From NCBI GenBank assembly GCA_023078685.1, contig JALGAS010000011.1:124001-188000 (forward strand): 64,000 nt of DNA. Reading direction: 5' to 3'. A program made the translations under genes and the position numbers. Source of the DNA: Neopestalotiopsis rosae (lineage: Eukaryota > Ascomycota > Sordariomycetes > Amphisphaeriales > Sporocadaceae). Of this stretch, positions 146 to 46,745 are shown piece after piece. Under the pieces are notes generated by a model. The model searched no databases, had not been told where the DNA came from, and saw only the letters and a program-made list of their open reading frames with translations. Position 1 is the stretch's first letter. Each line of letters begins with the position of its first letter.

Positions 146-1048
146 ATGTTCGCAAGCTATTTGTTCAGCGAAAAACATCGGTATGCTCCTCTGCCTTTGG
201 AAAACAAGACAGATTTGCCAGCCAGCAAGCCAAATCAACCCAATCGACGACGCACTTTTATCCAAGCTTTAATCGTCTTGGAGATAATTCATGTACTCAT
301 CGTCCTAATTGCGTACGCAGGCGGGCGCATTTTTGAGCATGCTCATACACAACATGAGTTGGATACTTGTTCGTGTGTCCTAGAATATGTGTCCTCAGGC
401 CGCTAAGAATACCATTTAGATTTTGACCTCTTTCATTATAACACTGTCAATTCATTTTACGGCGAATGGTCCCTGATGAATCGGACTGCCGAGTCCGATG
501 CTCTTTTTGAGCGAATTCAAATGAGTGAGTAGATTCAATATCGCCATTTTTGAACCAGAATACGCAGCTGAGACTCGTGCGTTTTTACTTCTCGCCTAGC
601 GGACGGCATTGTGGCTATTGATACCGACTGGGCACTTGTTCATGGCTATTCGCCTTCAGTGCAGCATCCTGAGGATGCATCCAAAAGCATTTACCAAATA
701 GATATGTTCCATTCCATGCATTGTATCGTAAGTTTTCATTTCTCTGCTTGTTGCATGCATCATGTTCACCAAAGAAAACAGTACCGACTCCGCAACAAGC
801 TGACGTCGCGCGCGCCCCTGGAAGAATGGCCACGCGACGATGAACACACACTACACTGCCTGGACTATATGAGAGAGCAGCTATTGTGCAACTCTGACCT
901 CACGCTGGAGGGGACTGACGATTTGCTGCACTTTAACAAAAACAGCGGCCACGTTTGCCGCAGTAGCGATGCGATTACAGCGTGGGCCGTGGCTCACCAC
1001 TGGAATGACCACCGGCAGTTCCTCAAGGACACCCAGAACTATGAGTAG
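146..1048 (+). CDS. UstYa-family (DUF3328) oxidase/cyclase 1, with an internal TAA
   Basis: UstYa-family proteins catalyse oxidative cyclisation of fungal RiPP cores and are usually membrane-anchored. The model uses ATG 146, introns 525-599 and 728-781, and a stop at 1046-1048; exon lengths sum to 258 codons. The N-terminus has the family look: a short cytoplasmic start containing HRYAPL, then one membrane helix near residues 34-55. Both HXXHC motifs are present once the 54-nt intron is removed, HSMHC just before 728 and HTLHC in the last exon. Codon 87 (404-406) is TAA, while the frame on either side is open and family-like. No GT-AG intron of normal length removes this stop in frame, so the gene may be inactivated, or the base may be an assembly error. 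It sits at the left edge of the RiPP cluster. Confidence 0.7.
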
Positions 1049-1685
1049 TTACAAAATCATCGTTGTGGCGATCAGGGGGCCTAGGCATTGTATTTACACA
1101 TCAGCTTTCACCAAAAATTTGGATAGACCTGAACATGATTAATTCTCGAAGAGGGCGCTATTCACAGAGAGCTTTCGCGCTAAAGTCATCCAAAGTCAAA
1201 ATCTTTCGTGTTCTGTTGAAGTATATAATTCATGTTTCAGAAGTTCTCTCAAAACTGTAATCGTTTTGAATAATCTTATGTACTGGTCTCGTTCATCGCA
1301 ATGTCTATGCCACGCTCCTGACAATGCCAGTCAGAATGAGCGGCGCACCTCGCCTACGGCCTTCCGCTGTCCCAATTCGCACCATGAACACTCTTGAAGA
1401 GGAGTCAGAATAGGCACATTAGTTATTGTCAATTCCAGCCAATCACGCTCGTTATCGCGGAGTTTGGTTGCGCGGCGCTGATGTTAACCCCATGCCGGTT
1501 TGGGAAAGGGCTGACTTCCCATCAATGGGCGCCGCCGTATCGCGGGTCTTGTGGAAGTTCACCTGGATATTATACGATACCTTGTGCACAACAACGGAAG
1601 CCGAAGTCGCATATTATCTGAAGCCCTCGGCGTCTCAATCTAGCTGCTTCAACTATCCATCGACCTTGTAACTATCATTTTGGTG
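1049..1685. other. Intergenic, no supported gene
   Basis: Two overlapping short frames around 1394-1671 show no recognisable domain. I take this as the promoter of the transporter starting at 1686. Confidence 0.5.
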
Positions 1686-3489
1686 ATGGATCTCGATGGG
1701 AATGGTACGCACGGTCTTGACGATCTCTGGGGTCAGGATGAAGAAAAGTTCGATATCCCGGATATGCCTTCACTGCCTCCGATGAGGAGCACTGGATTTC
1801 TTTTACTTCTCACGTCCGGTCTTGCTGGGCAAGTCCACCTATTCTAACACTCTGGCGTCTGTTCGATAGACATACTGACTATGCGCCAAAGCACAGATTG
1901 CAATGCGTCTTCGCTTTAGTCTTTTCAAATGGATCAGTAGGTCAGAATCCCGAGCCGAGTATGTTATTAGCTTGTGCAGCTCCTCTGACATTGATCAAAG
2001 GCCTATCTTAGTGATCTTGGGCTCAGCAGGCCAGTGCTCGCACTAGTCTGGACAGCCGGGCCCGTCGCAGGCATGATACTCCAGCCATACTTTGGTATCT
2101 GGAGTGATCAACTGGGCAGACGACAACCGTTTATCCTTCTTGGCACTCTTGCGATTGTTACATCACTTATCGGCCTAGCCTTCGTGCCGGTAGCGTTAAG
2201 CAATATAGGACTTTCTTCGGCGGCTCAATCGTTGGCGGTGCTCTTCATGGTGGCACTCAATATGGCTATTCAACCCCTTCAAGGCGGCTTGCGTGCCCAA
2301 TTGAGCGATGCCTGCTCTCGTGCGCAACAGCCCGCAGCCACGGCCTTTGCTGGTATTGTTGTGAGCGCGTCGAACGTGGCCAGCTACCTCATGGCCCTAG
2401 TGGACCTCCCTCAGGTTTTATCGCTGGGCGGGAGCTCCCAGTTCTCAATATTGTGCGTCATGACTTCCGTGGCCTTGGCGCTCACTGTGGCTTTGACTTG
2501 TCTGGGCGTGCGGGAGGGTCGTGACTACACAGTACAGAGAAACCCAGGTGTAAGTGCAGGAGCTGGTGCGAAACCTTTGTATATTGCCACCAGCCTTCGG
2601 CGTTTACCCAGACAGGTGCTCCAAGTGTACAAGGTTCAGTTCCTGGCGTGGATGGGGTGGTTTCCGTTCCTATTTTACATGGCGACACACATTGCTGAAA
2701 TAAGTAAGCCGGCCAACGTGATCAGTAATGCCAGGCGCACGTGTTTGTATGCTAACTCTACTCTTTATAGATCAGCAGTACACCCGAGACGAGTCCATCT
2801 CGGACGCGGATCTGTTGGCGAGATCGACACGGATAGGGTCGTTGGGCCTACTGCTCTTCGCAGCCGTAGGACTCATTTCAGGCATCGCTCTACCGCTGGC
2901 ACATCAACATGCAAAGCATGATGTCCGAAACATGGGGAGCACGTCTTCTTTCACCGGAACTATCAAGCAGTGGACTGGCAGTATCCCCCGACTTTGGCTT
3001 GCATCGCATCTTCTCTACGCGGCTTGCATGTTTGCTCTATTCTTTACGACATCACTCGCATGTGTGTGCACTCTCGTTGGCCTGTGTGGCATCAGCTGGG
3101 CAGTCACAATCTGGGCACCATGGGCAATCATCAGTCTACATGTCTCTTACGATACTGATGACTCCGACGCTTGCCTTTCCTTGATGCAGGAGTTTGGCGA
3201 GCCTGAGAAGGAGCCTAGCGAAGGATTAGTGCGGCCTAATCTAGGTTCAAGGCAGCCAGGGAAATTTGACAACTGCGAGCGGCGACCTGGCATAGTGCTG
3301 AGCCTTCATAATGCTTTCATTGCTGGTCCCCAGATCTTGGCCGCAGCGGGATGTAGCTTCATTTTTTGGGTCGTGGAAGGCACTGGACATGACGGGATGG
3401 CCTGGACAATGGGCTTTGGAGGCCTGGCTGGGCTTGGGGCAGCGATGTTATCAGCGGGCTTAGAGGAGAACTACAAGGTTGGCAAGTAA
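1686..3489 (+). CDS. GPH/SUT-type sugar transporter (alpha-glucoside/sucrose permease-like)
   Basis: This is a major-facilitator-type proton symporter of the glycoside/sucrose (SUT1-like) group, expected in the plasma membrane with about 12 helices. Family hallmarks are an LVFSNGS segment at the first intron pair, then LGLSRPVLALVWTAGP, and the loop GIWSDQLGRRQPFILLG between helices 2 and 3. Exons are 1686-1828, 1897-1936, 2001-2703 and 2771-3489, summing to 535 codons. The first intron appears to use a GC donor (GCAAGT at 1829), and the second ends in AAG at 2000. A possible further 48-nt in-frame intron at 3142-3189 would remove a loop. It lies inside the RiPP cluster, but the family normally moves sugars, so a role in peptide export is not supported. 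Confidence 0.8.
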
Positions 3490-3827
3490 CGCAGTGTGAC
3501 ACTGGTGTACTAGTACTCACCGTATCTTAGATAGCTTTTTTGGGACATCAGTTTGTATCTTTGCAGGATCAACTCAAGATATTCTTCGTTTCATTTACAA
3601 ATTCCTTCATATTGGCTCGGACGAGAGCAGACAAACCATAGCGTAAGGTTCGTGAAGCTAATAGTAACAGCATGAGGTAATGATGATTCAAATGCAATTG
3701 TGTCCGCATTTCTATCACGAAGCTATGACTAGTCTTATTATTCCGTGAGTCTTTCAATTGTGTTCAAAGTGGTTCGTACCAGGGGTCTTTGTCGATCATC
3801 GAGCAAGTTTGACTTGGTGGAACTCAT
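3490..3827. other. Convergent intergenic spacer
   Basis: This is the 3' spacer between the transporter on the plus strand and the arginase-family gene on the minus strand. I see nothing coding. Confidence 0.5.
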
Positions 3828-4877
3828 TTATGCAGTTGCTGATGCGCCTTTCAAAAGTCCCAGAGCAACCAAGCTTTTTATGAAAGCAACAACTCCATTA
3901 ACGGCCACGGGTGGAATTTTTCCAACCTTGTCAAACATTGGGTCATAGGACGCAATAGTCAACGAGACGGGTTTGGACATATGTGGAATCATTGCCAAGC
4001 AGCTCTTCAAGTCACTCTCCAACAAACCGCCGGGAGCAGAAAATTTATTCACGCTTCCCACCGAGCTGTCGAGAGCATCAAGATCCAAGTGCACCATGGT
4101 CTCGCCCAGTTCCTTATTCTTGAGGAGTCTGCGCAGCTTGCCCTCGAAATCAACTTGCTTGTCTGTGTCGCCCCAGACCACGGAGAACCCGGCCTCCAAG
4201 ACGCGAGAGCGTTCAAGGTCGGTGACGTCACGCATGCCGCAGTGGACGAGTTGACGCTGCAGGTCAAGCGGCTTGAAGCCAGGGATGCTAGCTAGAAGTG
4301 TCCTCCAGCAAAGGCCTGCGAGCATCGCCACGGGCATGGAGTCGAGATATCCACTGACCAGAACATCAGGAGTGTTGAAGTCATCGTGGGCGTCAAACCA
4401 TATGCAGGAGGGAACAATATTCCTGGCAGTCGCATATCCCGCTAGGACGCCGACGGTGGTGGAACAATTGCCCGCCAATACAATGGGGAACGAGTTTTGC
4501 TGCACGACTTCAGTGATGACCTTGGATGTGCGTCGCAGAAGCTCAAATAGGCGGCCTATCTCGCCATCGAATTCTTCGACGGGTTCCAGTTCAATCACGC
4601 GGACCGCTATGCCTTGCTTCTGGATGGCATCTGAAATGCCCGCGGTCAGCAACGCTGTCGGTCCAGCGCCGACAGCAGCATCTCGGACGCCGAGATGATA
4701 CGGGGATGAGATGAGGGTGACGGATTTTGCCGGAGTCATATCTGTGCTGATGGGGGAGAAAGATTGCGATGCGCTGCTCAAAGATGCGCAATAAGCCTTT
4801 TTGGAAGTCGAGGGTACGGTAGTAGAGCGAGACTTGCCCGCACGGCGAAGACGTCGTGCAAAATTACAGAAGTTCAT
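3828..4877 (-). CDS. Arginase-superfamily (ureohydrolase) enzyme
   Basis: Ureohydrolases use a two-metal (usually Mn) centre to hydrolyse guanidino or formimino groups. Two of the three family motifs are intact: the aspartate/histidine signature FDAHDDFNT and the late DLDALDSS (DxDxxD). The first motif, usually GGDHS, reads GNCST, so the usual histidine ligand is a cysteine. The core begins at Met 4739, giving 303 residues, the normal family length. An in-frame Met at 4877 adds 46 residues rich in Arg and Ser that could be a mitochondrial presequence; I chose it because the frame is open. It is a single exon. It lies between a transporter and a P450 in the RiPP cluster. It could be a formiminoglutamase-like enzyme, an agmatinase-like enzyme or a peptide arginase; the substrate cannot be read from sequence. 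Confidence 0.8.
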   Translation of the reverse strand: MNFCNFARRLRRAGKSRSTTVPSTSKKAYCASLSSASQSFSPISTDMTPAKSVTLISSPYHLGVRDAAVGAGPTALLTAGISDAIQKQGIAVRVIELEPVEEFDGEIGRLFELLRRTSKVITEVVQQNSFPIVLAGNCSTTVGVLAGYATARNIVPSCIWFDAHDDFNTPDVLVSGYLDSMPVAMLAGLCWRTLLASIPGFKPLDLQRQLVHCGMRDVTDLERSRVLEAGFSVVWGDTDKQVDFEGKLRRLLKNKELGETMVHLDLDALDSSVGSVNKFSAPGGLLESDLKSCLAMIPHMSKPVSLTIASYDPMFDKVGKIPPVAVNGVVAFIKSLVALGLLKGASATA

Positions 4878-4934
4878 TTGCAATCTGAGTGAAGGGAGAG
4901 AGTCAAAGGAAACAGATATTGCGGTAAAACTCAA

Positions 4935-5584
4935 TAAATAATTACGGCCCCCCTTTGTTTTTACGAGTGTCGTGCGAAGGGCGTCAGTTGGTGGAGTAGG
5001 CTTTTACCCCGCTACCTTGCCTCTAAAGTTGAAGCGTGATGGATATCCTAAATGAATTTTACCACCTTGCCTCTAAAGTTGAAGCGTGATGGATATTCTA
5101 GATTAAATCCACGAAACAAGGTAGCACGCGAACATAATTTGGACGACAGTGTTGGTACTAGGATGCATGCACAGAACTTCATCCAGTCCTGCGATGGATA
5201 CTGGGCCATTTCGGACGACTACGGCATCGCTCTCAAAGACTCTTATACCTAGAGCCTGGCGGTCAATAGTGACTGCTCGGGCTTGCAAGCAGATATTCAC
5301 GTTTGCATCGACGTATCATCGTAATCGATAAGCCTAGTTTCAAGCAAATAGACATAGGACCGCAATGCCTATCGAAGGTAATATTTTTAGTACTTACCCA
5401 GAATGTTGTACCAAACTCGATAGTAAAGGTCTTTCATACCCGTACATGAAATATCTAATATTCAAACTTTTCAACCATCGTTTTCAAAATTTATAATTAT
5501 GTCAGCCAAGTCAATTATGTCTAATATTGCGAATTCTTCATTGGGCGATTAACAATTTACCCACTGAAACCATGTTATACTTCC
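4935..5584. other. Intergenic with a direct repeat
   Basis: There is no gene I can support here. The stretch holds a 33-bp exact direct repeat (5014-5046 and 5064-5096), then AT-rich sequence that forms the 3' flank of the P450 gene. Confidence 0.5.
5014..5096. repeat. 33-bp exact direct repeat, 50-bp period
   Basis: The unit beginning ACCTTGCCTCTAAAG runs from 5014 to 5046 and recurs without change at 5064-5096, with 17 bp between the copies. It lies upstream of the arginase-family gene (start 4877 or 4739, minus strand), so it could be a duplicated promoter element or a recent slippage event. Confidence 0.85.
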
Positions 5585-7284
5585 TTACAGGGCAGTCACT
5601 GTAACCTCCAACCCTTTAAATCTATCGCTCGGCATTGAAACATGATAGTCATGAACAAATGCCACATCGCTCGCCTTAGTCTTCCACAGCTTCATATCAA
5701 AGCCCTGAACCAGCGCTGCAGTCACCAGATACATCTCGGCACGTGCCAGCTCGATGCCAAGGCACTTTCTGCTGCCCTTGCCAAATGACATCTGATATTT
5801 CTGGAGCTTGCGGCCCTCTTCACCGAGCCAGCGTTCCGGATCGAAGACGAATGGGTCGGGGAAGACACTCGGTGCGGTATGGGCGCTCAAGGTAGTTGTG
5901 CTCATGGGAGTACCGGCGGGAATCCTGAAGGACTTTCCGGTGTTTGAAGAGTGAGCTGCATAAGACGTAGGGGTGTATTGGAGTGTTTCCCGGGCGATAC
6001 GTGCTGTTCTGGTCGTCACACCGAAGGAGAGACGGTGACCTTCCTCGATGACCGCGGTGAGATACGGCAGTCGCTCAAGTTGGGTCCACGATGCTGGTCG
6101 TGCGACAGTGCTGAGTTCTTCCCGTAGCTTGCTCATGATCTTTGCATTGGCCAGCAGGTGGTAGAATATCATGTTGAGGGACTTGGCTGGTGATTCGGTC
6201 CCTGCGAGAACCAAAAGTGCACCTTCTTGCTCAAGACGAAGTAAAGACTTCTCTGGTGCGGGCAAGATAGGATTGTCAAGGACATTATAATATACAGATT
6301 TTGCACTCGAAGAATCGCTGCCGGCCCCAGAAGCTTTAGCTTTGATGATGCCTACCAGTTCGGCTCGTACACGCTGTGTTTTTAGTATTAGTACATGATC
6401 CCAATAAATTTCAGGGCAACGCATACATCAAATAGGTCTAGCATATCAAGCACACTAGGTGGCATGATAGGCCTGCTGATGGATTTCGGGAGAGATTCAA
6501 GGAAGTCGGGGATGAAGGGGAAGTGCTTGTTGAGATGAATCCCCATCATGAGCTCGTAGCTGTTGTGGCGCAATGTGGCGGCTTTCTTTTCATCCGAAAG
6601 GATGTCTGTCCTCTGAGAGAACAGGAAGTTGTTGACAACACTGGCCTCTGTTAGGGTTATTCTTCGTCCGAGTTTGATCAGATCTTACTCATTGGAGAAG
6701 GCGAAAAAGACATCCGAAAGATTGACTGGTGTCTGTTCGGAAGCATGTTGCAAAAGCAATTGACAGAGCTGTTGGACCTTCTCGGTAATCGTCGGTTCAA
6801 GGAAGATTACATTGCGCTTGCTGAAGAATGGTGACAGAGCTTCACGTCGTTTGCGATGGACCTCAAGACTGGGAGTACTGCCAACTCCACCGGGAACCCG
6901 CAAAGATCTCAGTTGATACTCATACTTGTCTCTCGGAGAAGAAGACGGGGCATAAATGGTGTCGAGGAATCCAACATCATCGATGTGAATCTCGTCCGGT
7001 GTGACCCGGATGATTGGTCCTGAGAGGTAAATTAGTTGCTGTGCTATGAACTACAATTGCGCACGTATTGGCGTACCGTATTTTTTGTGCAGCTCCTGGA
7101 TTTTGAAGACATATCGGCCGGGTTGAATGGCGTCGAAATAGAACTCATACCACCAGGTGAGAGCCGCAAGTCTCGGGCCAGGGATATGAGCCAAGGGATG
7201 AAGGAACAAACGGCGTATGGCACCTCCAATGGTCAGCACGGCGGCCAAAAGCACTGTCGTCAGGAAGATTTGAAGGATAGCCAT
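5585..7284 (-). CDS. Cytochrome P450 (trichodiene-oxygenase-like)
   Basis: This is a microsomal haem-thiolate monooxygenase. Exons on the minus strand are 7284-7077, 7019-6689, 6640-6427 and 6373-5585, summing to 514 codons (513 aa). Seen motifs: an N-terminal membrane anchor (residues about 3-24), the proline-rich hinge HIPGP, I-helix AGTES near residue 310, ExxR as EGHR near 362-365, and the haem loop FGKGSRKCLG with Cys near 455. The sequence around KYGPIIRVTPDEIHI and the C-terminal haem region resemble the fungal CYP58/trichodiene-oxygenase group by eye. Splicing was set by GTACGC, GTAAGA and GTATGC donors and by recovery of conserved runs across each junction. In this context it is a likely tailoring oxidase of the RiPP cluster. 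Confidence 0.92.
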
Positions 7285-7855
7285 GGCAAGTTCTACGCCA
7301 CACGAATGGGACGGGGGAGGAGACTAGAGAGTCAGAAGATGCCGTGTAGATATTGACCATGAAAGTCGAAGTTGGGAGGTACGGGACGGGCGGCGCGGGG
7401 CGGCGTTCGCACAGGAGGCACAGCAGCGCGGTAAGACATGGTGGTCTGGCAAGCTTGAACATGCCCCACGCCTCAGCCGACGTTGTGTTACCCTCCTCCG
7501 CCCCCAACACAGGACTTTTGTCTTCCACGCCCAGTGCTGCTGACTGCATACACCAGTTCCTACTACCACCCACCAAAGATCCTTGTACCGGTCAACTCCA
7601 AGAATTTCCAGTACCCATGCAGCCACAATACGGAGCGCCAAAAGTCCCCGCGAATCCCCCACGCTTATCGTTACATGTATCAAATTCTCGGCTGACTTTA
7701 TTTTTGCCATGGTTCCAATGTTTTTCTGATTATCTTCGTCAGACACCCCGAAATAGCCGAAGAGTCTTTCGTGCAGCAGTGTTTGATTTACAAGCTTCGT
7801 GACGCTCAACAAGACTTCACAGCTGTTTCCCTGGTATCCAAACAACACCGTCAAT
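7285..7855. other. Divergent promoter region, P450 / SAT4 gene
   Basis: This 571-bp spacer separates the P450 (minus) from the SAT4-type gene (plus). Frames within it have no domain and overlap each other on both strands. Confidence 0.55.
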
Positions 7856-9246
7856 ATGGACGGCCCTCCGGTCATGACAGATTATTATACCACTCCAGCA
7901 TCAGTCATCTTCATCAGCATCTTCTTTCCCATCCTCGGCGCCACTTGTGTAGCGCTACGCTTTTACACTAGAGCCAAGGCGAAGAGTGCGTTTTGGTGGG
8001 ATGACTGGCTATGTATTCCAGCGCTGGTATGCACACGCAATATATTCCATTCAGTTCATAGTATAGGCGAACTAATTGTGCCCAGATTTTCGAGCTTGCG
8101 ATGGCGGCGCTCCTCATATGGGGCGTTTCGAAGAGCGCGTTGGGATGGCATCTCCCTTTACCACCTGACCCAAGTCCAAACGCATATCTGTTTTTCACCT
8201 CGTCCCAACAAATAATTCTTCAGCAAGTACGTAGATGGCGATCAAAACCGTGCCACTTGGAAGAACTTCTTACTAACGCTCATCATAGATCCAGTATTTC
8301 TTCGACCTCATTGGAGTATTTGCCTTCGGGTCGCTCAAGCTCAGCATCCTATTCTTCTACCGCAAGATATTCTGCGTCAGCAAAACAAACAGAGATGCCT
8401 TCAACATCATTACAGCTTCAATGATCGTAATAGTTATCGTCTGGACTTTGACTTTCGGAATCGGAGCCATCTTCCTATGTGGTGCTCGTCCTGCCTACGC
8501 TTGGGCACCCATTGCTCTGGTTGCGGAGCATTGTACTGCGCAGCTGCAGTTTCTCGAGGCATATGCTATCTCCGATTTCATTATGGATTGTTTCATCTGG
8601 TCGCTGCCAATCCCTAAGATCTGGGGGTTGCACATGGCCGTCAGGAAGAGATTGAGCGTCATCGCCATCTTTCTTGTCGGTATACTGTAAGTCGTCAGAG
8701 ACTTCTCCCTCTCCTGGATGGCAGGTCGGAGGTGGAGTCATGACTAACATCGTGGATAGCACAATTGGAGCTTCCGGCGCAAGAATGGCCATCTATATCA
8801 TCTACGTCGTCAACGCATTTGCCCAATCCGACGGCGAAAGTATGAATTTCGTCCCTGATTCCCTGCTCACCCAAGAATACTAACATATGGCAGAAATAAT
8901 CACCTACCTCCTCTTCTGGACCATGATAGAATGTGGTCTCGGACTCATGGTAGTATGCCTACCTGCGCTAGGTGTTCCCATGCGCACCTTCCTCACTGCC
9001 ATCTCGCCAGGCTCGCTGATCAGCGGCATCAAATCCGTCTTTACAACGCGCTCGCTTAAGACTGAGGGGAGTCTGGAAGCAGGCGTCTACCGGCTCGACA
9101 GTGTCAGTCAGTCGCACAAAGAGTTGACTTCTGATTGGAGTCGCTATGCGCCGACGGAGGGGGCGCTGCATACTTCCGTTGTTGGACCCACTGACTCTGA
9201 TTATTCGTTGGACCCACTGACTCTGATTATTCGTCGAGACAGGTGA
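7856..9246 (+). CDS. SAT4-family rhodopsin-like seven-helix membrane protein, C-terminus frameshifted
   Basis: Fungal SAT4/rhodopsin-domain integral membrane proteins have seven helices and often sit in metabolite clusters; their molecular role is unknown. Exons are 7856-8026, 8086-8226, 8289-8686, 8760-8839 and 8894-9246. Typical signatures include RFYTRAKAK followed by WWDDWLCIPAL after helix 1, a FGSLKLSILFFYRKIF segment, and a helix ending CLPALGVPMRTFL. The last 20 or so residues are abnormal because a 26-bp tandem duplication (9181-9232) shifts the frame and stops it at 9244-9246. Downstream of the second copy the other frame stays open to 9294 and encodes a basic tail typical of the family. 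It is flanked by the P450 and UstYa-2. Confidence 0.85.
9181..9232 (+). repeat. 26-bp perfect tandem duplication in a coding exon
   Basis: Copy 1 is 9181-9206 and copy 2 is 9207-9232, each starting GTTGGACCCACTGACTCTGA. Since 26 is not a multiple of three, the second copy is read in a new frame, which changes and shortens the C-terminus of the SAT4-family protein. Confidence 0.95.
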
Positions 9247-9887
9247 AGCCGATCAATGGAGCAATTCATGTTCGAAAAGAGATGCAGCAGTATTGAAGAA
9301 ATCTCTGAGACCTCTCGAGATTGTGTTGTGCTGCTTTTATCGGTCCTGCTGTGATGGCCTTCCCGACACATGCTGTATATAGAACTTCTCGCAAATCGTG
9401 TCAACTGGGTATTTAAAACACATCTTGCATGTGCGGAAATTAGTGCAGAATTCAATGATGACTCAATAAAGCAAGAGCCATGCTCACATTTTCTAATCGC
9501 TCCCCAACTATTTGCGTACGAAAAGCGGTGCATCTCCCATGAAAGGAGCCGTCTGCTCACGTAGTCTTAAACTGAAAAGTACGTCAGAGGGATCAATCAA
9601 CCAATCGATTGGCTACTTGAAAACAATCACTCAGGAGAGGGAAAAGTCGCAGGAAACCATCCAAAAGAAAGCTGGAAGCAACTTCAGAACCCGCAACCAA
9701 TTAATTCAAATTAAATCAATACAGAGGGGAATCGCAGTGCAAGGGCAATGCGGCTTCCTCGTCTAGAAGATACCAGACGAACTGGTTTGAGTCGCTCGAC
9801 CACCAAGCCAGCCACTTGACCATTGATACTTGTTGGTTGATGGCAAACTTCAAATTGTATGGAATATATTTTATTCTATCTACACAT
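9247..9887. other. Convergent intergenic spacer
   Basis: The first 48 bp (9247-9294) are the displaced C-terminal codons of the SAT4-type gene. The rest holds no supported gene. Confidence 0.5.
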
Positions 9888-10660
9888 TTATGGCCCCTTA
9901 AGATCCGCGCAATGGCCAGTGGGCCAACAAGCCGTATGCTCCTTCGCAAACTCCGTCAAAGCATCCCAATCCCGACACAGCCGAAATTGACCATCTCCTG
10001 TCAGCTTCGACCGATAGGGTGCATACAGCGGGTTATCGTTCGCGCGGCATTGGATTTCCTGGCGAAGCGCATCGTAGCAGTGATTGATATGGACGGCTTT
10101 CTCGTCGACGGACTTGCCTGCCATCAGGTCCTGGATCACTTGCCGCAGGTATATCTGCTCCCGGATTAGTGAGACTTTGAAAGGCCCAGGTGGCTTGCGC
10201 CTTTACTGGAGAGGGGGCAATTTGTTGCATACCACGCAGTGCAGCTCGTGAAAACCTGAGAGTACGTAGACCCCCTTCTCCGCATCGTCGGGAAAGTCCT
10301 CGGCGGCAGGGAGGCCAGCGCGCGCGGCCTCGCGGTGCGGAATGGCGATGAACCCGTTGGTGGTGAAACCGCTCCATGCCATGTCGGATATAGATTGGTT
10401 CACGTTGCTGTACTCCGTGTAGGTGTGGAACTGTTTCCATGATTTTCCTCGCGAGTATATACCAGCTTTCAGATATTTAGTGTGCGTTTTATTAGAAGCG
10501 TGCCAAAGTTCAACAACTCACTGAAGCCATGGTCATCGACTGCGAGCTGCAGCCGCCGAATCTGCGCGTATAGAGAGATGTTGCAGATAACGAGGACTAG
10601 GGAGAGGAGAATCAGTGGAGTGGGCTGGAGAAAGAACGGGTAACGTCGTGAGGAGTCCAT
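9888..10660 (-). CDS. UstYa-family (DUF3328) oxidase/cyclase 2
   Basis: Exons on the minus strand are 10660-10522, 10465-10233 and 10157-9888, summing to 214 codons (213 aa). The start is the ATG at 10660, since the longer upstream frame lacks an ATG. A single membrane helix (PLILLSLVLVICNISLYA) lies at residues about 15-32. The two family motifs are HELHC at the end of exon 2 and HINHC in exon 3, spaced as in UstYa; the last exon ends in the usual Trp-rich region before a Cys. The second acceptor could be GAG at 10158 or a CAG three bases on; both keep frame. It is transcribed away from the precursor gene and shares its upstream region, consistent with co-regulation. Confidence 0.88.
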
Positions 10661-11532
10661 GGGATGCTGGTTCTCCGGGTTGTGGTTATCGGTGGAGGTT
10701 GCTTTCAAACTGAATCTGATATTGACGTCGCTTCAGGGAGGATATTGCTATAGCTGTTCGGCAGATGCAGGTCCCCACTTTCTCGAAACCAGGAATCAAT
10801 TACAGCAGACATCACATGCCACTAAAGGTAACTGCCCATCGATTGCACAGCCTCCAGCTGGGATGAAATCCTGCTGCAAATTACTTGCATACTGGAGGCT
10901 ACCGGGATCTTCATTGGGTCTTGATAACGGTGATGTTGGCAGAAGGATCGACCTGTGTACCGCAAGGGCAAATCGCACCTATTTGAGCCATAAGATTCGC
11001 TGCCTGCTCAAACGAAGGGCACTGGAGGCTAACGGCGCTTATGGGTATCTAGGCACCTCGTATTCACGCTACTGTAGTACCGGTACATTGCTGTGCCTCT
11101 CGGAATCCTTTCAACAACCAGAGCACGATTTTTCCATCCACCCTCTTTGGGCGTAGACATTTGCCTAAGGAGGAATATCTAAAATACAACTTTACATTGG
11201 CCGTGATACCACCCTCCAACCTGAGCTCCTAGGGGGTTTTGAATTGGGGAGTGCTGCCGCGATGGCCCCCACCCCCTTCGGCCTCTATAGCGCGGCCCCC
11301 AAATTCATATGTGGTACAGTATTTACAGTTTTTAGAAGCGCACATGATGTTGATTGCAACGTTCTTATATGACGTGAGTGGACACCGCTAGCCAGGCCGT
11401 CAGGTACGAAAGACCTACTTTATTGTTAGCGCTATATTACAGGGTGAAGCTACACCAACCGCAAGTTCATATCAGCAAGAAACTTGACAACGCAAACTTC
11501 AAGTCCGCTCTATCAATCGTCTTCTACAAGGA
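10661..11532. promoter_or_regulatory. Shared divergent promoter region, UstYa-2 / RiPP precursor
   Basis: This 872-bp region lies between the divergently transcribed UstYa-2 and precursor genes. A plus-strand frame at 10659-11156 has no domain and I discount it. A GC-rich block around 11230-11306 is the most distinctive part. Confidence 0.5.
11240..11306. promoter_or_regulatory. Imperfect inverted repeat, candidate regulator site
   Basis: TGAATTGGGG at 11240-11249 and GCCGCG nearby at 11256-11261 are mirrored by CGCGGC at 11291-11296 and CCCCAAATTCA at 11297-11306, with a few extra bases in the left arm. Such palindromes can bind dimeric zinc-cluster factors. The match is imperfect and may be chance. 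Confidence 0.25.
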
Positions 11533-11842
11533 ATGATGAAGTTATTTCTCATCTCCCTCGCCAGTCTTGGTATGATCAGTCAAGCCATGGCTTTGCCACG
11601 TGCAGGTATGTTGATTGCGCGAGTTCAAATCGGAATCCTCTTATGCTTATAAGAATTTAGGAGCTAACATTATGGCTCCTGCCGGCGAAGCCCTCAAGCG
11701 TCATGAGGAAGCCGTCGACGGTACCCAAATTGCTGAGGGCTGGAAGCGCAACGAGGAGGCCGTCGATGGTACGCAGATCGCAGAGGGCTGGAAACGTAAT
11801 GAGGAAGCTGTTGACGGCACCCAAATCGCTGAAGGATGGTAA
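11533..11842 (+). CDS. Secreted Kex2-processed repeat peptide, candidate RiPP precursor
   Basis: The product is 84 residues, from exons 11533-11605 and 11661-11842 (intron 11606-11660, GTATGT...TTAG). It starts with a clear signal peptide (residues 1-20, ending in AMA), then a short leader ending in Lys-Arg. Three 14-residue units follow: HEEAVDGTQIAEGW once and NEEAVDGTQIAEGW twice. They are separated by Lys-Arg, the cleavage site of the Golgi protease Kex2, and the protein ends at the last Trp. This layout matches known dikaritin precursors such as UstA and PhomA, whose cores are cut out by Kex2 and cyclised by UstYa proteins. The core here has no Tyr or Cys, so the ring chemistry must differ from ustiloxin. 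Four UstYa genes lie within 11.5 kb. A mating-pheromone precursor has a similar layout but is less likely given these neighbours. Confidence 0.88.
11702..11839 (+). repeat. Three 48-bp coding repeats (14 aa plus Lys-Arg)
   Basis: Units lie at 11702-11743, 11750-11791 and 11798-11839, with Lys-Arg codons at 11744-11749 and 11792-11797. Units 2 and 3 differ at 11 codons but encode the same peptide; unit 1 differs from them only in its first residue (His instead of Asn). Confidence 0.95.
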
Positions 11843-12301
11843 ACAATCTTCGGCTGTGATGTCGGGAGCGCATTGTTATGATTTCAGACCATGATACATC
11901 ACATATGAGGCACGCAGTGACAATTGAGACTCGATGAGGGGCAATGTACGATTTTATATTAGGAGATCTCCTATAAGTTGACAAAGATATTTGCAAGCTG
12001 CAGAATCCATGACACACTCTATGAATCGAGATAAAGAAATTTGATTTGTCGTGGTTGAGAGCCGTAGTCTTTAGGTACGGGTGACCTGTATATCAGGAAG
12101 GCCTTCAAGCATTCTACAGAAGGTACGGTGAGTTTAAGGCGGAAAACAGCATGATTGTGGAGAACTCGGGAACTTTAGCATCTTTTTGATCATGACTTGT
12201 GCTGTCTTTGGTCAAATCAAATCTTTATAAGTTACCCACTCTAGACAGCTGTTTCTTCTTTTCTACTTAGTACTGTACATTTTCCGAAACGAAATAAACC
12301 C
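11843..12301. other. Convergent intergenic spacer
   Basis: This is the 3' flank shared by the precursor (plus) and UstYa-3 (minus). Nothing coding is seen. Confidence 0.5.
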
Positions 12302-13204
12302 TCACAAAACACCCGATATGCCATCATCGTTGATCTCACAGTGATTGAAATGATCAAACAACGGAATTGGATGGTCACCGTCTGCATAGCACGCCGTGTT
12401 CTCTCTCGCCCACTTCTTCCTGCTGTCCCAATCAACACATTTCCGTAGCTGCCCATCACCCGTCTCGTTGCGACCCCAAGTATACAGCAAAGTATCCCCC
12501 GAGTCGCCACACATCACATACTGCAACAAACTATCGAAACAATGCATCGAGTGCTGTATTGGAACGCTTGGGGTCTTGCCCGAGACAATTTCGGTTAGGG
12601 TCTTGCGGATGATGGTGAGACAGTGGAGCTGATGATATCTAGAGTTCAACGTCAACAACTGCACTGCTTTTATGAGGGGATGGAGAGACTAACGCATCGA
12701 TAATGTAGACACCTTTGGAAGAATCCGAAGGAAGGCTCATGCTTCCTGGGAGATCGTGCTCCGCAGCCCACGTATGATTGATGGCTACAAATCCAAACGC
12801 TGGCACAATTCGATCCCATGCCGCATTTACAGCGTCTGTGGCTCCCGGGTCTTTGGAGCTATAGACATCGGAGACCCAATGAAATTGTCTCCAGCGCTCA
12901 TTATTCGATGTTAGGCCTGTAAACATGAGATACGGTCCCCCTTTCAGGATTGACGACACTTACGATAGTCTTGGACCTGTGCCCTTGTTCTCCCTTCAAA
13001 TGGCTTAAGAGAGTGTTCGAACGTGAGGAATGCGCACACGACACAGAGACCCAAAATTGCCAGCTCTCGCCACCACTCAACGAGATTTGTGAAGAACTGG
13101 CATCCTCGGGCTATACTTCCAGGAGATGCCTTCTCGCCTGAGTCATTGTCGTCGTCGCCCAGTAGGGTGTACCCAGCTGTCGGGAGTCGTAAATTTGAAA
13201 GCAT
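12302..13204 (-). CDS. UstYa-family (DUF3328) oxidase/cyclase 3
   Basis: Exons on the minus strand are 13204-12964, 12916-12694 and 12638-12302, summing to 267 codons (266 aa). A cytoplasmic start (with AGYTLLGDDD) leads to one helix, ELAILGLCVVCAFLTF, near residues 45-60. The family motifs are HQLHC right after the second intron (donor GTTAGT, 55 nt) and HSMHC about 30 residues later, followed by a Cys-rich, Trp-containing tail. The first intron is short at 47 nt. It converges on the precursor gene, 460 bp from its stop. Confidence 0.9.
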
Positions 13205-15017
13205 AATGCTAGAAGAAACCCACACTTGGCACCTGAAGAAAGGAGTATCGAAATCTGTCGAGGGGACAAGCTTGAATTCGAGCTCACAGAATACCCCTTC
13301 AATGTCCTACGACTGTCCTGGTGATAGATGGTCCGGGCATGTACCGGTACGGGCTCGGGGATCATCATTACAGCCCCCAAACCGGTGATCACGAAGCTAC
13401 GCCCAGTCCGGGTACGGGGAGGAGACTGGTTCTTAGAGACATCTGTTGATCTACCGGAAAGCCTAGCGCTGATAGCGCTGCCTTGGCTGTGCCGAAATAC
13501 AGCCAATGGCGCAGCCCAACGGTGCACCCTTGTAACAGGGCAGAGGAGCCGAAGCGGCACAGGCCTATTCATTGCGGTTGAGTTATCAGCTCGATTGGCT
13601 TCATAATGCAACACGAAGTACGGGTGGCTTCCTAAAAATACAATACATGGAAGCTAAAAGTCATGCACATTAGATTTACCGGGATGGGACATTTCACGAA
13701 CGTCAATGGGGACCTCTTATCTGTGTTACCCTACCAGAAATCCTTTATCTTCCCGCAGAAGGAACAGCAGTGATGTAACTGCGACCAACGTGAAAGCAAA
13801 TTTGCCTATGTCTTAGTACTCATTCGGGATTGATGTAGAGCAAGGTGATGCACCAATCATTAGCAGCGAATACGCCCAGAGATAAGTTCGTCATGAAAAG
13901 CCTTACTAGGATGCTCGGTACTGGAAATGGATACTCTCCCGGTGGCTGACGCTACAGTCAGCGGCACAATCGCAGCCACATAGATTCAGCACACTCCTGC
14001 AAGCCATCCCACAACGGCTGCAGTCAGCGTTCCAGCATTGTGTAATTCCCTATACTAGTGTAACTTTCTAATTTCCCCCACCTTGATGCGACCTTGCATT
14101 ACCTGTGCCGTGCTATACTCCCTCCAGCAGCCCCTAAACGATGGCTGCAGTTGATAGCTGTAGTGCGATATTGACGTATTGTTGGCGCTGAACATGCCCT
14201 GAAATGCGACTGTTAGTGATCCTTCACCAATCCTTCTAGGACCGTGGGGGCCATACCAGCCCAAGCCCATTGTCAGCATGTAATATTACCCTCGAGCATC
14301 TCTCCGCTCGACGATATGCCGAACCATCGAGATGCTAGATACTGGGCCGGTTGAAAATCCTAGTTACACGGAACATAGTAATCCTAGTGGCGCCATATTA
14401 TACTCCCTCTACCAGCCCCCAACTTGCGCTATCATCTAGGTTACTATCTTTACCAGCCAGTCTCATTGATGTATGGCCTCACCTCTGCATTCAGCCCGCA
14501 AACGATCGAGTATGTGGCGTTGCCGTTCGAAGGAATTGTGTAGTAGACTATAGGTATGTAAGCATCATTCAAGTATGGTTGCCTGCAGGTGGATTTCTTA
14601 TGGCCCGAAACGTGCGCAATTGGCGCGGCAGATCTACTAACTAGTGGCAGTGTACTCTTGGCGGCCACTTTCCTAGACTGCCACACACCCGGGGAAATTC
14701 ATCAACGTTCCGAGAAGAACCTTTGGTTCTTTCAGGCTGTAGGAGTGTTCATACCACAGCAGTATCAATAAATTGATCCTGATCCGAGGACTTTATGTGG
14801 ATTGGGGCAAGAAGGATTCACCTCAGGCACCAAGTACGTAGATACAACGCAGCCCACGACTATGCAAGACTCCGAAAATAGTAACTTCCAAGTAGACGTG
14901 TACCCTCATCGGACCCTGCCTAACGGATAGGCCTAGTACTACTGCAGCACTTGCCATAGCTCTATAGTTCTATTCCTCGTCAATTTGCACCATCTACAAC
15001 ACACACCACAAGGAGCC
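13205..15017. promoter_or_regulatory. 1.8-kb divergent region, UstYa-3 / UstYa-4, no confirmed gene
   Basis: This long spacer separates two divergent UstYa genes. Minus-strand frames at 14450-14686 and 14055-14279 contain peptide-like runs with N-glycosylation sites and share a related segment ending AGGGAGTATA, but I could not build a gene with a start and splice sites. They may be remnants of a small secreted protein gene. Confidence 0.4.
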
Positions 15018-15990
15018 ATGAAGAGACCGCCCAGCTACGAACGTCTGAGCGAAGATGCGGACGAAGAGAAACTACTGCCCCATGATGATTGCATCCCAGA
15101 GCCCACTGTACGAGACAAAGCCCCAAACTGGCGATGTCTTCTTGCTGGAATTTTCATCGGTATCCTCCTTAGCCTACTTGCTTTCAGTACAGTTGCATTT
15201 GTTCAACCCAAGAACAAGTGCACACTAAAGATGAATACCTGGTCCCCTGCGCTCGAGATCTTCGACGACGACGACTTGGAGATCCAGCGCTTCAATGGGA
15301 CGCTGAGGGTCCCCCACGAATTCAGCGCGGCTCCGAGTGATGAGATCGATGAGAAGTGGGACAAGATCACTTTTGCCAAAGGAGGCCTGATGCGATTGTC
15401 GGAGGACGATGTGCACAGAATCAACGCTTCGGAGTATGCTGCCGAGTACACTGAGGAGATGGGCCGCGGATACATGGGTGCCTTTGAAGTGTTCCATGGA
15501 CTCCACTGTCTGAATATGTTGCGTCAAGCATCGTACATGGATCACTATCTGCCAAAGAAGAAGGAGTGGAGGGACGACCCCGAGACGCTGAGATTTCATC
15601 TGGGTCAGCCCCCCTCAAAGCCGAATGACGAGCTACACTGACCAAATTGCAGACCACTGTATAGATATGCTGCGACAAAAGGTAAGGCCGGCTGGATGAC
15701 TTATTTACGTAAGATCGCTGACTTTTCCCTAGCTTATGTGCGAGCCTGATCTCGGTATGGTGACATATACTTGGGTCAACGGCTTCGAACAAGTATTCCC
15801 CGACTTTAACGTGTATGTACTCCCGTATTGACTTCGCTTATAATCACTGACACTTGCTATGGGCAGAATGCACAAGTGTCGACCGTACTCAAAAGTACTT
15901 GACTGGGCTGAGGAACACAGCATCCATAATTTGAATGTCTCAGGCTTCGTACGTGCCCCAGGGGCTCTTGATAAAGAAGGACGCCCTTGA
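15018..15990 (+). CDS. UstYa-family (DUF3328) oxidase/cyclase 4
   Basis: Exons are 15018-15603, 15653-15681, 15733-15812 and 15867-15990, summing to 273 codons (272 aa). The N-terminus (MKRPPSYERLSEDADEEKLL) is acidic and cytoplasmic, followed by a helix near residues 46-66 (LLAGIFIGILLSLLAFSTVAF). The central YSPA-like element reads WSPALEIFDDDD. The HXXHC pair is HGLHC in exon 1 and HLDHC formed across the first intron, which supports that splice. A conserved end KVLDWAEEH follows. Read through without splicing the frame stops at 15641, so the small exons matter. It is divergent from UstYa-3. Confidence 0.9.
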
Positions 15991-16373
15991 AAGAGTAGTA
16001 ATCTCGACGCGGATATGGCGGAGATAGTGATGTTCTCTATTTGTTAGCTGGGTTTAAGGGTCTGCAAGCAGATGTCTACGATTACATCGACGTCCCGTCT
16101 ATTCAAGCCATCACTCATTCACGATCGCCCTTCTGAACTTAGATGCCAGAAAACCATTGGATCACGAAACCATAATTTTTGATATTTTTAATATTTCTGG
16201 TACCTGTCTAAGTCCGCCCAAGTACCGACCCAGCCAAACTTAACCTCCATCTGTGGCCACGCTATTCGTAGAACTCAACGGGTAACCCCAAACCGGAGCT
16301 TGCTGTATAGCTGACTTATGCAGCGGTCAGGCACCATGTTTCAATAATATCATTCTTTGCTCCTGTTTGTTTC
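15991..16373. other. Convergent intergenic spacer
   Basis: No gene is seen between UstYa-4 (plus) and the MFS transporter (minus). Confidence 0.5.
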
Positions 16374-18198
16374 CTAGATCGTAAACTTACTTCGAGCCCT
16401 GAGTCTCGCCCCGTAGTGGAAAAGGGCGAAGATTCCAAGGATTCCGAGAACACACACTCCAGCTATCAACGAAGATCCGCGAGAAATGCCAAGGTTTTCG
16501 TACAATGGGCGTGACCAAAGCAAGGCTCCGAAAGCTATCAAAGACCTTGAAAAGTTGTTGCCACCAAACGCAGAGGCGGCATAATGAGGAAAGCCCAGGG
16601 ATATGTAGACAAAGACACATTGCAAGATAATGACCATGCCCGCCGAGGTGAGTCCAACGCCTATAGTGGGTACCATCCAGTGAATGTCTGCCCGTGCCGT
16701 CCATGCGAAGAGAAATAATCCAGTAGGTACGAGAAAAGAAGCCATGAGTCCCGGTATCAGTCGACGCTCTGGCGTCATGGCACTGCTTGCTGCGCGAGGG
16801 TTCACATACAAGTAAATGTATAAGCAGTAAGGGATACCCACTAAAACGACCGACACCACAATCACTAGATACGGTAGACCTGACTGACCCAAGCTGAAGC
16901 CGTAGATTCCTTGATAGACAAGTGGAAAGACTTCAAAGAAGGAATAATATATCCCGTAGACAAGTCCTCCATAAAGGCTCGTAAAGAGAATAGAAGGATC
17001 CAACGCATGCATTTGCCACGGCATAAGGAGCGACTGTCGCAAGGCGTGTCCAGCGGATTGATGTTCCTTTGAATCCATAATGCTTCGATAGTTTCTGTCT
17101 CGGTCATCCGCGGCGAGTCTTTGTGCCCGGAGATGCAGTATCCTTCGGGGCGAGGTTTCTGGAAGCAGAAGCTAGAACCAAGTCAGTATTTGGGAGCCAA
17201 ACAGACACCATATTGCACTAACTATCAAGATGACAGATGGTCCGTTGACGATGACAATCTCCCAGAGAGACCACCTCCACCCTAGGACGGGAATGGCGAA
17301 ACCCGATATGATTGGCGCGATTGAAGGGGCAGCAAAGCCGGAACAGGCCCACGTGTAGAGTGCAATGGGTTGCACATCCGGGTGGCAGACATCAGACAGT
17401 GATGCGCCACCGAAAGATAGTACGGGAGATCCGAAGAATCCCTGCAAAAGGCGAAGTATCAAGAGGCTTGTGATGTCTTGAGCTGTAGCAGTGAGAGTGG
17501 AAAGTGTGAGGAAGATGATGGAGGAAACCACGTAGGGCGGATTGCGCCCGATGCGTGCATTGTCGGCCAATGGGGAGAAAATGATAGGACCAAGCCCATA
17601 ACCTAGGACAAACAGAGCCAACCCTAGACTGGCCGCTGTTTGCGACACGTGGAAATCGTGCATGACTCCGTCTTGCGACGCGGCATAGATGGAAGAAGAC
17701 ATATAAACTGCAGCGTTTGCATAGTTTATGATGAAAAAAACTCGCAACTTCTTGTAGAGCGACCAATTCTTGGGGTTCGTATTATCTGTTGAAGATGTCC
17801 AGTCGACAAGGACTAAATTGTTGACATTGCCATCCACAGCACGTATTGGAATCGGCACCCGAGTGGACCATCCGGTCTCGTACTGTCGTGCTGAATCGTC
17901 TTGGATCGCCCTCTTCTCCAATGAGTCCTGAGTCTCACATTCAGTTGGGATTGCTCAGGTCGGGGAAAGTGTTCGCACTGACTTCCAGCCCCACCGAACT
18001 CATGACTGGGGGTACGAGAATGCTGTCGCCGTGGTTCGCACAGCCTGGTGTCGCCAATGACGATTTGGCATGCCGTACATCACTATATGTACTGGTACCT
18101 TCTTCCTTTGGATATGCCAGCCATTTTCCTTGACTCATAAGCCTGGAGATGTCACCCAACTGGGTGTCTATGAGGAACTCATGTGCAGTAGAGGACAT
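16374..18198 (-). CDS. MFS multidrug-type (DHA1-like) transporter
   Basis: This is a proton antiporter of the major facilitator superfamily, expected in the plasma membrane. Exons on the minus strand are 18198-17983, 17927-17223 and 17171-16374, summing to 573 codons (572 aa). The cytoplasmic N-terminus precedes the family signature NPKNWSLYKK and helix 1; a conserved LPETSPRR loop follows helix 6, right after a 51-nt intron whose donor is GTTAGT. The first exon was assigned because no ATG precedes helix 1 in exon 2 and a GTCAGT...CAG intron joins the frames. About 12 helices are visible. At the right edge of the RiPP cluster it is the best candidate for product export. Confidence 0.85.
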
Positions 18199-46529: not shown

Positions 46530-46745
46530 ATGGAATTTAAGTCACAATGAATAAGCAAGGATTGTACATATCGTACATTTCAACGCGCAAATTTCAGCCA
46601 CGGTTGTTGGAGTCAAGTACAAAAGATGATTTGGAAGCCAATTCAATTTTGTTTCACAACTAACATTCTGATTAATAGTACAGCTAGGGTAAAAGCAGAA
46701 ACCTCCCAATTAAGGCTGCTAAACATGGTACTACAAGAGTCCGCC

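What the first reader, a model, noticed from the sequence alone, without database searches (positions are those of the whole stretch)
146..18198. Candidate new RiPP (dikaritin-like) gene cluster with four UstYa-family genes
Seen: a secreted Kex2-repeat precursor (11533-11842), four genes with paired HXXHC motifs, a P450, an arginase-family enzyme, a SAT4 membrane protein and two transporters in 18 kb. Known: ustiloxin, phomopsin, asperipin and victorin clusters pair Kex2-repeat precursors with UstYa-family oxidases. Inference: this locus makes an undescribed cyclic peptide. No tyrosinase-like, methyltransferase or PLP enzyme is visible, so tailoring must differ from ustiloxin.
Basis: partly seen in the sequence, partly recalled or inferred. 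Interest (0 to 1): 0.93.

Follow-up and report, generated by a model that had tools for sequence, protein, structure and literature searches.

The report
Likely fungal cyclic-peptide gene cluster
A fungal gene cluster that most likely makes small modified (probably cyclic) peptides from repeat proteins; it is one of many of its kind, but a second, unusual precursor gene lies just outside the stretch that was first read.

Summary
In detail: all ten genes are there, with coherent intron models. The four "HXXHC" genes match UstYa (PF11807) above cut-off and each carries the paired motif. The precursor has three 14-residue units; over 13 shared residues all 11 variable bases are silent third positions. 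A dikaritin-type RiPP cluster is the best reading; product and crosslink are untested.

Just outside the window lies a second secreted repeat protein, 12 EDLKGM units, head to head with the first UstYa gene. Only 2 of its 11 separators are dibasic, so it fails the published Kex2-repeat definition. Further left are a divergent HXXHC protein, an alpha-galactosidase, a regulator and an AT-rich RIP-like island.

The kind is common here: 78 UstYa exon matches, and 8 of 10 other UstYa loci read (two in part) hold a repeat precursor. Lack of tyrosine is not rare. The "arginase" lacks the GGDHS His and is not a peptide arginase.

Verdict: new member of a known kind, with an atypical second precursor.

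The parts
146..1048 (+). U1, UstYa-family membrane protein, 240 aa, HSMHC and HTLHC; head to head with precursor P2 that lies left of the window (C3:122463-123223)
   Evidence: PF11807 67.2 bits; introns 369-419, 525-599, 728-781
1686..3489 (+). MFS transporter 1; first two introns uncertain
   Evidence: PF07690 40.7 bits, cut-off 33.4 (model)
3828..4877 (-). Arginase-fold protein, intronless, 349 aa; GNCST in place of GGDHS, DAHDD and DLDALD kept
   Evidence: PF00491 81.4 bits; alignment to arginase 2eiv; rocF equivalog cut-off not reached, 76.8 against 227.6
5585..7284 (-). Cytochrome P450, 513 aa
   Evidence: PF00067 164 bits; model
7856..9246 (+). SAT4/fungal rhodopsin-domain membrane protein, 380 aa
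   Evidence: PF20684 130.8 bits; model
9888..10660 (-). U2, UstYa-family protein, 212 aa, HELHC and HINHC; head to head with precursor P1 (872 bases between starts)
   Evidence: PF11807 87.2 bits; model
11533..11842 (+). P1, secreted Kex2-repeat precursor, 84 aa; intron 11606-11660
   Evidence: its 59-aa second-exon part matches once in the genome
11702..11743 (+). P1 unit 1, HEEAVDGTQIAEGW, followed by KR
11750..11791 (+). P1 unit 2, NEEAVDGTQIAEGW, followed by KR
11798..11839 (+). P1 unit 3, NEEAVDGTQIAEGW, followed by the stop codon
12302..13204 (-). U3, UstYa-family protein, 266 aa, HQLHC and HSMHC; closest relative of U2 among the sequences compared
   Evidence: PF11807 73.0 bits; U2-U3 34% over 174 aa
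15018..15990 (+). U4, UstYa-family protein, 272 aa, HGLHC and HLDHC (second motif formed across an intron whose acceptor was chosen by hand)
   Evidence: PF11807 183.8 bits; model
16374..18198 (-). MFS transporter 2; first intron uncertain
   Evidence: PF07690 117.6 bits; model

Best explanation
This is a UstYa-type (dikaritin-type) RiPP cluster of an unidentified filamentous fungus. Shown by sequence: P1 is an 84-aa repeat protein with a signal-like N-terminus (by eye) and three 14-residue units set off by KR; four intact UstYa genes sit with it, two of them flanking it (U2 head to head, U3 downstream); two MFS transporters, a P450, a SAT4 protein and an arginase-fold protein are interspersed; a second repeat precursor P2 (12 units, EDLKGM core) is head to head with U1 just left of the window. 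Inferred: P1 enters the ER, Kex2 cuts after each KR and a carboxypeptidase trims KR, leaving (H/N)EEAVDGTQIAEGW; UstYa oxidases, most likely the related pair U2 and U3, close a ring by oxidative crosslinking, with the terminal Trp next to the KR as the likeliest aromatic partner and the Ile of the same unit a possible aliphatic one. This follows victorin, where a C-terminal Phe is joined to an internal Leu (review PMC9233826, passage). The acidic EEAVD part would be a trimmed spacer. P2 would be processed in the same compartment and handled mainly by U1, with Phe as the aromatic residue. The P450 would oxidise further and an MFS protein would export. The roles of the arginase-fold and SAT4 proteins are not assigned. 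Likelihood: cluster type about 0.85; P1 really modified by UstYa about 0.7; the Trp crosslink in particular about 0.35; P2 a substrate of the same cluster about 0.6.
For: All ten gene calls hold. Silent-only divergence of the P1 repeats. P1 meets the published KEP definition, at least 3 repeats of at least 8 aa between dibasic sites, with the reservation that its third unit ends at the stop codon. The same arrangement recurs in this genome: 8 of 10 other UstYa loci read (two of the ten only in part) have a repeat precursor, each 0.86-2.8 kb from a UstYa match, against none in 75 kb of neighbouring non-UstYa DNA (one low-complexity hit there was discarded by eye). In print, 22% of 7878 KEPs have UstYa (DUF3328) genes nearby, on average 3.09 genes away, and pheromone KEPs almost never do (PMC7329392). 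P2: 12 units whose core codons differ by 88, 0 and 312 bases at positions 1, 2 and 3 over 66 pairs; of the differing codon pairs 261 are silent and 67 are not. P2/U1 and P1/U2 both share short divergent intergenic regions of 922 and 872 bases.
Against: No expression, mass or knock-out data exist here. The cores lack Tyr, which 65.6% of UstYa-associated repeats have; Trp is no more frequent near UstYa genes than elsewhere (20.5% against 24.5%), so Trp itself gives no support. Tyrosinase and methyltransferase, in the original dikaritin definition, were not found. P2 has only 2 dibasic separators of 11. The left part holds an alpha-galactosidase gene that may be a bystander, so P2 and P1 may belong to two neighbouring clusters. 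The second HXXHC of U4 depends on a hand-chosen splice site. Signal peptides and membrane spans were judged by eye.
Confidence: 0.8

Rival explanations
1. Two independent, abutting clusters: a left one (regulator, U0, P2, U1) and a right one (P1 with U2, U3, U4, P450, MFS2), each making its own peptide.
For: P2 and P1 units share no sequence by eye; U2 and U3 are each other's closest relatives among those compared and flank P1; U1 is beside P2; an alpha-galactosidase and a transporter lie in the left part.
Against: No AT-rich island separates them; the RIP-like island lies left of both; the starts of P1 and P2 are about 12 kb apart.
Confidence: 0.35
2. P1 and/or P2 are unmodified linear secreted peptides (pheromone, signalling or surface-repellent type), and the UstYa genes act on something else.
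For: 6120 of 7878 surveyed KEPs have no UstYa gene nearby and several known ones act as linear peptides (PMC7329392); P1 lacks Tyr.
Against: P1 matches no mating-factor family (0 Pfam families at E 0.01) and has no XA/XP dipeptide after KR; pheromone KEPs are almost never beside UstYa genes; P1 is flanked by U2 and U3.
Confidence: 0.12
3. The UstYa genes tailor a non-RiPP peptide, as in the cyclochlorotine pathway, and the repeat proteins are bystanders.
For: UstYa-family proteins hydroxylate and chlorinate in the cyclochlorotine cluster (stated in PMC12048977, passage).
Against: No megasynthase-sized open frame was listed in C3:84001-188000: the longest is 898 aa, window 34204-36897, with no Pfam family (frames were listed without splicing); two repeat precursors lie directly beside UstYa genes.
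Confidence: 0.05

Closest known systems
Ustiloxin and phomopsin clusters (dikaritins)
   Same: Secreted KR-repeat precursor and several UstYa proteins (2 and 5 in print); ustiloxin B also involves a P450 (passage); transporters belong to the original definition
   Different: No tyrosinase match on the contig; no methyltransferase among the genes scanned; core without Tyr; three repeats only; a second unrelated precursor
Victorin
   Same: UstYa-type RiPP whose ring is closed through a C-terminal Phe and an internal Leu instead of Tyr (PMC9233826, passage); P1 ends in Trp and P2 carries Phe with an upstream Leu
   Different: Victorin gene set not compared (its paper is not held); no chlorination enzyme was sought here
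Asperipin-2a and epichloecyclin clusters
   Same: Repeat precursor plus UstYa; absence of a tyrosinase is recalled for asperipin-2a
   Different: Both crosslink Tyr; one UstYa for asperipin-2a against four or five here
OspR-type peptide arginases of bacterial RiPPs (PF12640)
   Same: Arginase-fold enzyme in a RiPP cluster; OspR also lacks the proton-shuttle His
   Different: Ours matches PF00491 and not PF12640, has GNCST instead of EEH(N/H)EAF, and neither putative core holds Arg

Membership tests
Dikaritin (UstYa-type RiPP) | Secreted precursor with repeats between Kex2 sites (at least 3 repeats of at least 8 aa between KR/KK/RK/RR) | tested here: met
   P1: three 14-aa units, KR before the first and between them, the third ending at the stop, against the criterion in PMC7329392. 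Signal peptide judged by eye only.
Dikaritin (UstYa-type RiPP) | The same feature, for the second precursor P2 | tested here: not met
   12 units but dibasic in 2 of 11 separators
Dikaritin (UstYa-type RiPP) | UstYa/DUF3328 proteins with two HXXHC motifs close to the precursor | tested here: met
   4 of 4 over the Pfam cut-off and with the pair; for U4 the second motif rests on a hand-chosen splice site
Dikaritin (UstYa-type RiPP) | Tyrosinase and methyltransferase (original five-part definition, as quoted in PMC12048977) | tested here: not met
   No PF00264 match on contig C3; no methyltransferase among the genes scanned. Later definitions do not require them.
Dikaritin (UstYa-type RiPP) | Transporter in the cluster | tested here: met
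   Two PF07690 genes over cut-off
Dikaritin (UstYa-type RiPP) | Product is a side-chain crosslinked peptide | not testable with these tools
   Needs mass spectrometry
Alpha-type mating pheromone precursor | MF_alpha or MF_alpha_N domain, or XA/XP dipeptides after KR | tested here: not met
   P1 has no Pfam family at E 0.01; KR is followed by HE or NE
Conventional arginase/ureohydrolase | GGDHS, DAHXD and SXDXDXXDP motifs | tested here: not met
   GNCST, DAHDD, HLDLDALDS; DAHXD and both Asp of DxD are kept, the His of GGDHS is Cys (motifs from PMC10028609, passage)
[quoted passage not shown]
   Only PF00491 matches at E 0.01; motifs absent from the sequence (motifs quoted)

The most novel reading that the evidence does not exclude
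P2 stands for a hidden class of UstYa substrates: secreted repeat precursors cut mainly at single Arg (here EAR, in 8 of 11 separators), which a survey that asks for at least three repeats between KR/KK/RK/RR sites leaves out. A second candidate lies at C12:2.467 Mb of the same genome (SYWPR units, dibasic in 2 of 4 intervals). If so, the count of fungal cyclic peptides is an underestimate, and this cluster is a two-product system in which one enzyme set serves a Kex2-cut Trp core and a single-Arg-cut Lys/Phe core.
Probability: 0.35. Interest if true: 0.6.

Novelty: new member of a known kind. Interest (0 to 1): 0.45.

Why it matters
As of a 2022 review only five dikaritins had been reported (PMC10512285, passage), against 1758 repeat-protein genes with a UstYa gene nearby in one survey. 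A cluster whose cores lack Tyr tests whether UstYa oxidases crosslink other residues. P2 shows that the definition used to mine such precursors can miss one sitting directly beside a UstYa gene. The genome itself, with 78 UstYa exon matches and repeat precursors at 9 of 11 UstYa loci examined, this one included, would be a rich test bed.

Tried and rejected
Rejected: peptide arginase acting on core Arg (no Arg in either putative core; wrong family). Alpha-pheromone. Arginase-fold gene as a recurrent partner of UstYa loci: of 8 arginase-family genes, as I grouped the 16 matches, one besides ours lies 6 kb from a UstYa match (C11:3.147 Mb) and one about 19 kb away (C1:6.497 Mb, not read); the DNA of the first shows a GGDHS-bearing enzyme unlike ours, so no pattern. 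SAT4 as a signature: 158 matches genome-wide. Subtelomeric location: on C3 the list returned shows telomere repeats at the far end only, so not shown. Shared promoter motif: the palindrome GTACCGGTAC occurs twice in C3:84001-188000, in the U2-P1 and U3-U4 intergenic regions, and not in 200 kb of other loci; picked after looking, so only a lead. Resemblance of EDLKGMF to the victorin core: core letters recalled, and chance matches in so short a string are likely; no weight given. PDB search with U4: nothing. Relatives of the arginase-fold protein in bacterial and archaeal genomes: none confirmed. No structure prediction was run: no deep alignment of relatives could be had. Rows dropped by eye from the repeat scan: antisense and out-of-frame readings of the same arrays, and low-complexity or coiled-coil frames.
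Full report
Setting. The window is C3:124001-188000 of an unnamed fungal genome of 53.77 Mb in 17 contigs. Window coordinate = C3 coordinate minus 124000. The species was not identified.

The observation. I rebuilt the ten genes from the raw sequence with intron models and scanned them with Pfam. The four UstYa proteins score 67.2, 87.2, 73.0 and 183.8 bits (cut-off 25), each has a membrane-spanning N-terminal region by eye, and each has a pair of HXXHC motifs. In U4 the second motif (HLDHC) appears only after splicing and with the acceptor that I chose; an equally scored model lacks it. MFS1 and MFS2 have uncertain first introns.

The first precursor (P1). MMKLFLISLASLGMISQAMA-LPRAGANIMAPAGEALKR, then HEEAVDGTQIAEGW-KR, NEEAVDGTQIAEGW-KR, NEEAVDGTQIAEGW-stop. 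The three 13-residue stretches are identical in protein but differ by 6, 6 and 10 bases, all third positions and silent; 0 of 200000 random placements of 11 changes left the protein unchanged (a crude null that ignores transition bias). Selection on the peptide is the plain reading. The P1 second-exon part (59 aa) matches once in the genome, P2 once, and their strings occur in none of 5.39 million papers.

Beyond the window edge. Because U1 starts at base 146, I fetched C3:84001-124000. Immediately left is a second repeat precursor, P2, at C3:122463-123223 on the minus strand: MHTMRATIIAIALFGGSGLAA-PI, then 12 units of EDLKGM(F/L)(S/T)T(S/T) with (H/Q)D after it in eleven, the last ending TTTVDSE after a 56-base intron. 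The separators are VEAR (six), IEAR, GAPVEAR, AAPVKAR, VAPAKR and SAPAKR: 2 of 11 are dibasic. Codons of the ten-residue core differ by 88, 0 and 312 bases at positions 1, 2 and 3 over 66 pairs of units; 261 differing codon pairs are silent and 67 are not, the latter Ser/Thr swaps and one Phe/Leu by the unit list. P2 starts 922 bases from U1, head to head; P1 starts 872 bases from U2, head to head. Further left come an alpha-galactosidase (PF16499), U0 at C3:117836-118747 (one membrane span by eye, HLAHC and HTRHC, 282 aa; no Pfam family) and a Zn2Cys6 regulator (PF00172 and PF11951 on two frames). U0 is related to a frame at another repeat-precursor locus (C12:2.362 Mb; E 2e-12 in a set of some twenty sequences) and only marginally to a UstYa profile built from this genome (E 6.4e-6 in a set of five). 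C3:105-114 kb is AT-rich (28-41% G+C) with TA/AT above 1 in 9 of 9 windows and (CA+TG)/(AC+GT) below 1.03 in 7 of 9, the mark of repeat-induced point mutation (thresholds recalled). A PLP aminotransferase (PF00155) lies at C3:89.7-91.1 kb, beyond that island, so I do not count it in.

Is the association more than chance? PF11807 gives 78 exon matches in the genome, which I grouped by eye into 28 places, this one included. I read nine others (at C1:6.46-6.48 Mb the last stretch was not obtained) and part of a tenth. Eight of these ten hold a repeat precursor, 0.86-2.8 kb from a UstYa match: units with EYSKR, VWSNSAITSAKR, WAWTKWED, PLYWTAALL, EPHHKGKGKK, RSYWPR, CAIPWTKNYGDYDEKR and YLVKYEGD. 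None was found at C16:1.681 Mb, nor in the part read at C11:3.15 Mb. Dibasic sites occur in 39 of 39 intervals of seven of these eight, and in 2 of 4 of the RSYWPR one. The same scan over 75 kb of neighbouring DNA (window 18.9-64 kb and C3:84001-114000) found none; one low-complexity hit was discarded by eye. Umemura reports 5.25 such proteins per ascomycete on average and 22% of 7878 with a UstYa gene nearby (PMC7329392; parts 1 and 2 of 8 of the text and search passages seen). The pairing is thus real, and ordinary for this genome.

What the cores lack. Neither P1 nor P2 units hold Tyr. In print, 65.6% of UstYa-associated repeat sequences do, so about a third do not; Trp is in 20.5% of those with UstYa genes nearby and in 24.5% of the rest. 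The lack of Tyr is a minority trait and not a new one. Of the eight other precursors here, two have Trp and no Tyr in the unit (VWSNSAIT, WAWTKWED), three have both, two have Tyr alone and one has HH (by eye). A precedent for a non-Tyr ring is victorin, closed through a C-terminal Phe and an internal Leu (review PMC9233826, search passages).

The arginase-fold protein. It aligns to solved arginases from about residue 50 on (best 2eiv, residues 53-325). GGDHS reads GNCST, the SGNVHG stretch reads SGYLDS, and SLDLVEVNP reads SLTIASYDP. In human arginase I these hold, as recalled, the first metal-binding His, the proton-shuttle His and the guanidinium-binding Glu. DAHDD and DLD, the other metal-site residues, are kept. 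OspR, a real peptide arginase, has also lost the shuttle His (PMC10028609, passages), so a peptide substrate is not excluded; but OspR keeps all six metal ligands, belongs to PF12640 and acts on core Arg, none of which holds here. The first 46 residues look like a mitochondrial presequence, or the start may be Met47. I infer a changed, perhaps non-hydrolytic, function, outside the secretory pathway in which P1 matures.

Mechanism, with status. Shown by sequence: gene content, motifs, repeats, selection on the units, head-to-head pairs. Inferred from known families: ER entry, Kex2 cutting at KR, UstYa-driven oxidative ring closure, P450 oxidation, MFS export. Guess: Trp as the crosslinked residue of P1, U2/U3 for P1 and U1 for P2; cleavage of P2 at single Arg by an unknown protease.

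Papers. Seen as search passages only: PMC12048977, PMC6339444, PMC9233826, PMC12703449, PMC10028609, PMC10512285. The victorin paper is not held.

Verdict. It is a new member of a known and, in this genome, abundant kind. What lifts it somewhat is P2, which the published repeat-protein definition (at least three repeats between KR, KK, RK or RR) would drop although it stands beside a UstYa gene. Whether P1 and P2 are one system or two neighbours is open. That I know of no such cluster in print rests on searches of one open-access library; fungal relatives were not searched.

Noticed in passing
L013 (C3:114001-124000), 8463-9223, minus strand: Second secreted repeat precursor P2, 12 EDLKGM units with mostly single-Arg separators, outside the window
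   Followed up: yes
L013 3836-4747, plus strand: U0, a membrane protein with paired HXXHC (30 residues apart) and no Pfam family; a relative lies at another repeat-precursor locus (L031 5718-6485). Possibly a subfamily missed by PF11807.
   Followed up: partly
L028 5180-5494 (C12:2466879-2467193): Another UstYa-side repeat protein with few dibasic sites (units DNDVDAANLRSYWPR; dibasic in 2 of 4 intervals)
   Followed up: partly
L031 3861-4298 (C12:2360360-2360797): Repeat precursor with two different alternating units (CAIPWTKNYGDYDE and SIDARACVSSTEEDGTVV), set off by KR sites; may yield two peptides
   Followed up: no
C3:105001-114000 (L012): AT-rich island of 28-41% G+C with RIP-like dinucleotide bias, bounding the cluster on the left
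   Followed up: partly
window 9181-9234: A perfect 26-base tandem duplication at the 3' end of the SAT4 coding sequence
   Followed up: no
window about 10849-11031: TGGAGGCT occurs three times in the U2-P1 intergenic region and six times in all of C3:84001-188000; possible regulator site
   Followed up: partly
window 41926-48143: PTR2 peptide transporter, amidohydrolase and aspartyl protease genes side by side, about 24-30 kb right of the cluster
   Followed up: no
C11:3146500-3155500 (L037): UstYa-like frames next to a GGDHS-bearing arginase-family gene, an amidase-like frame and a Zn2Cys6-like regulator (the last two by eye); no repeat precursor found in the 9 kb read
   Followed up: partly
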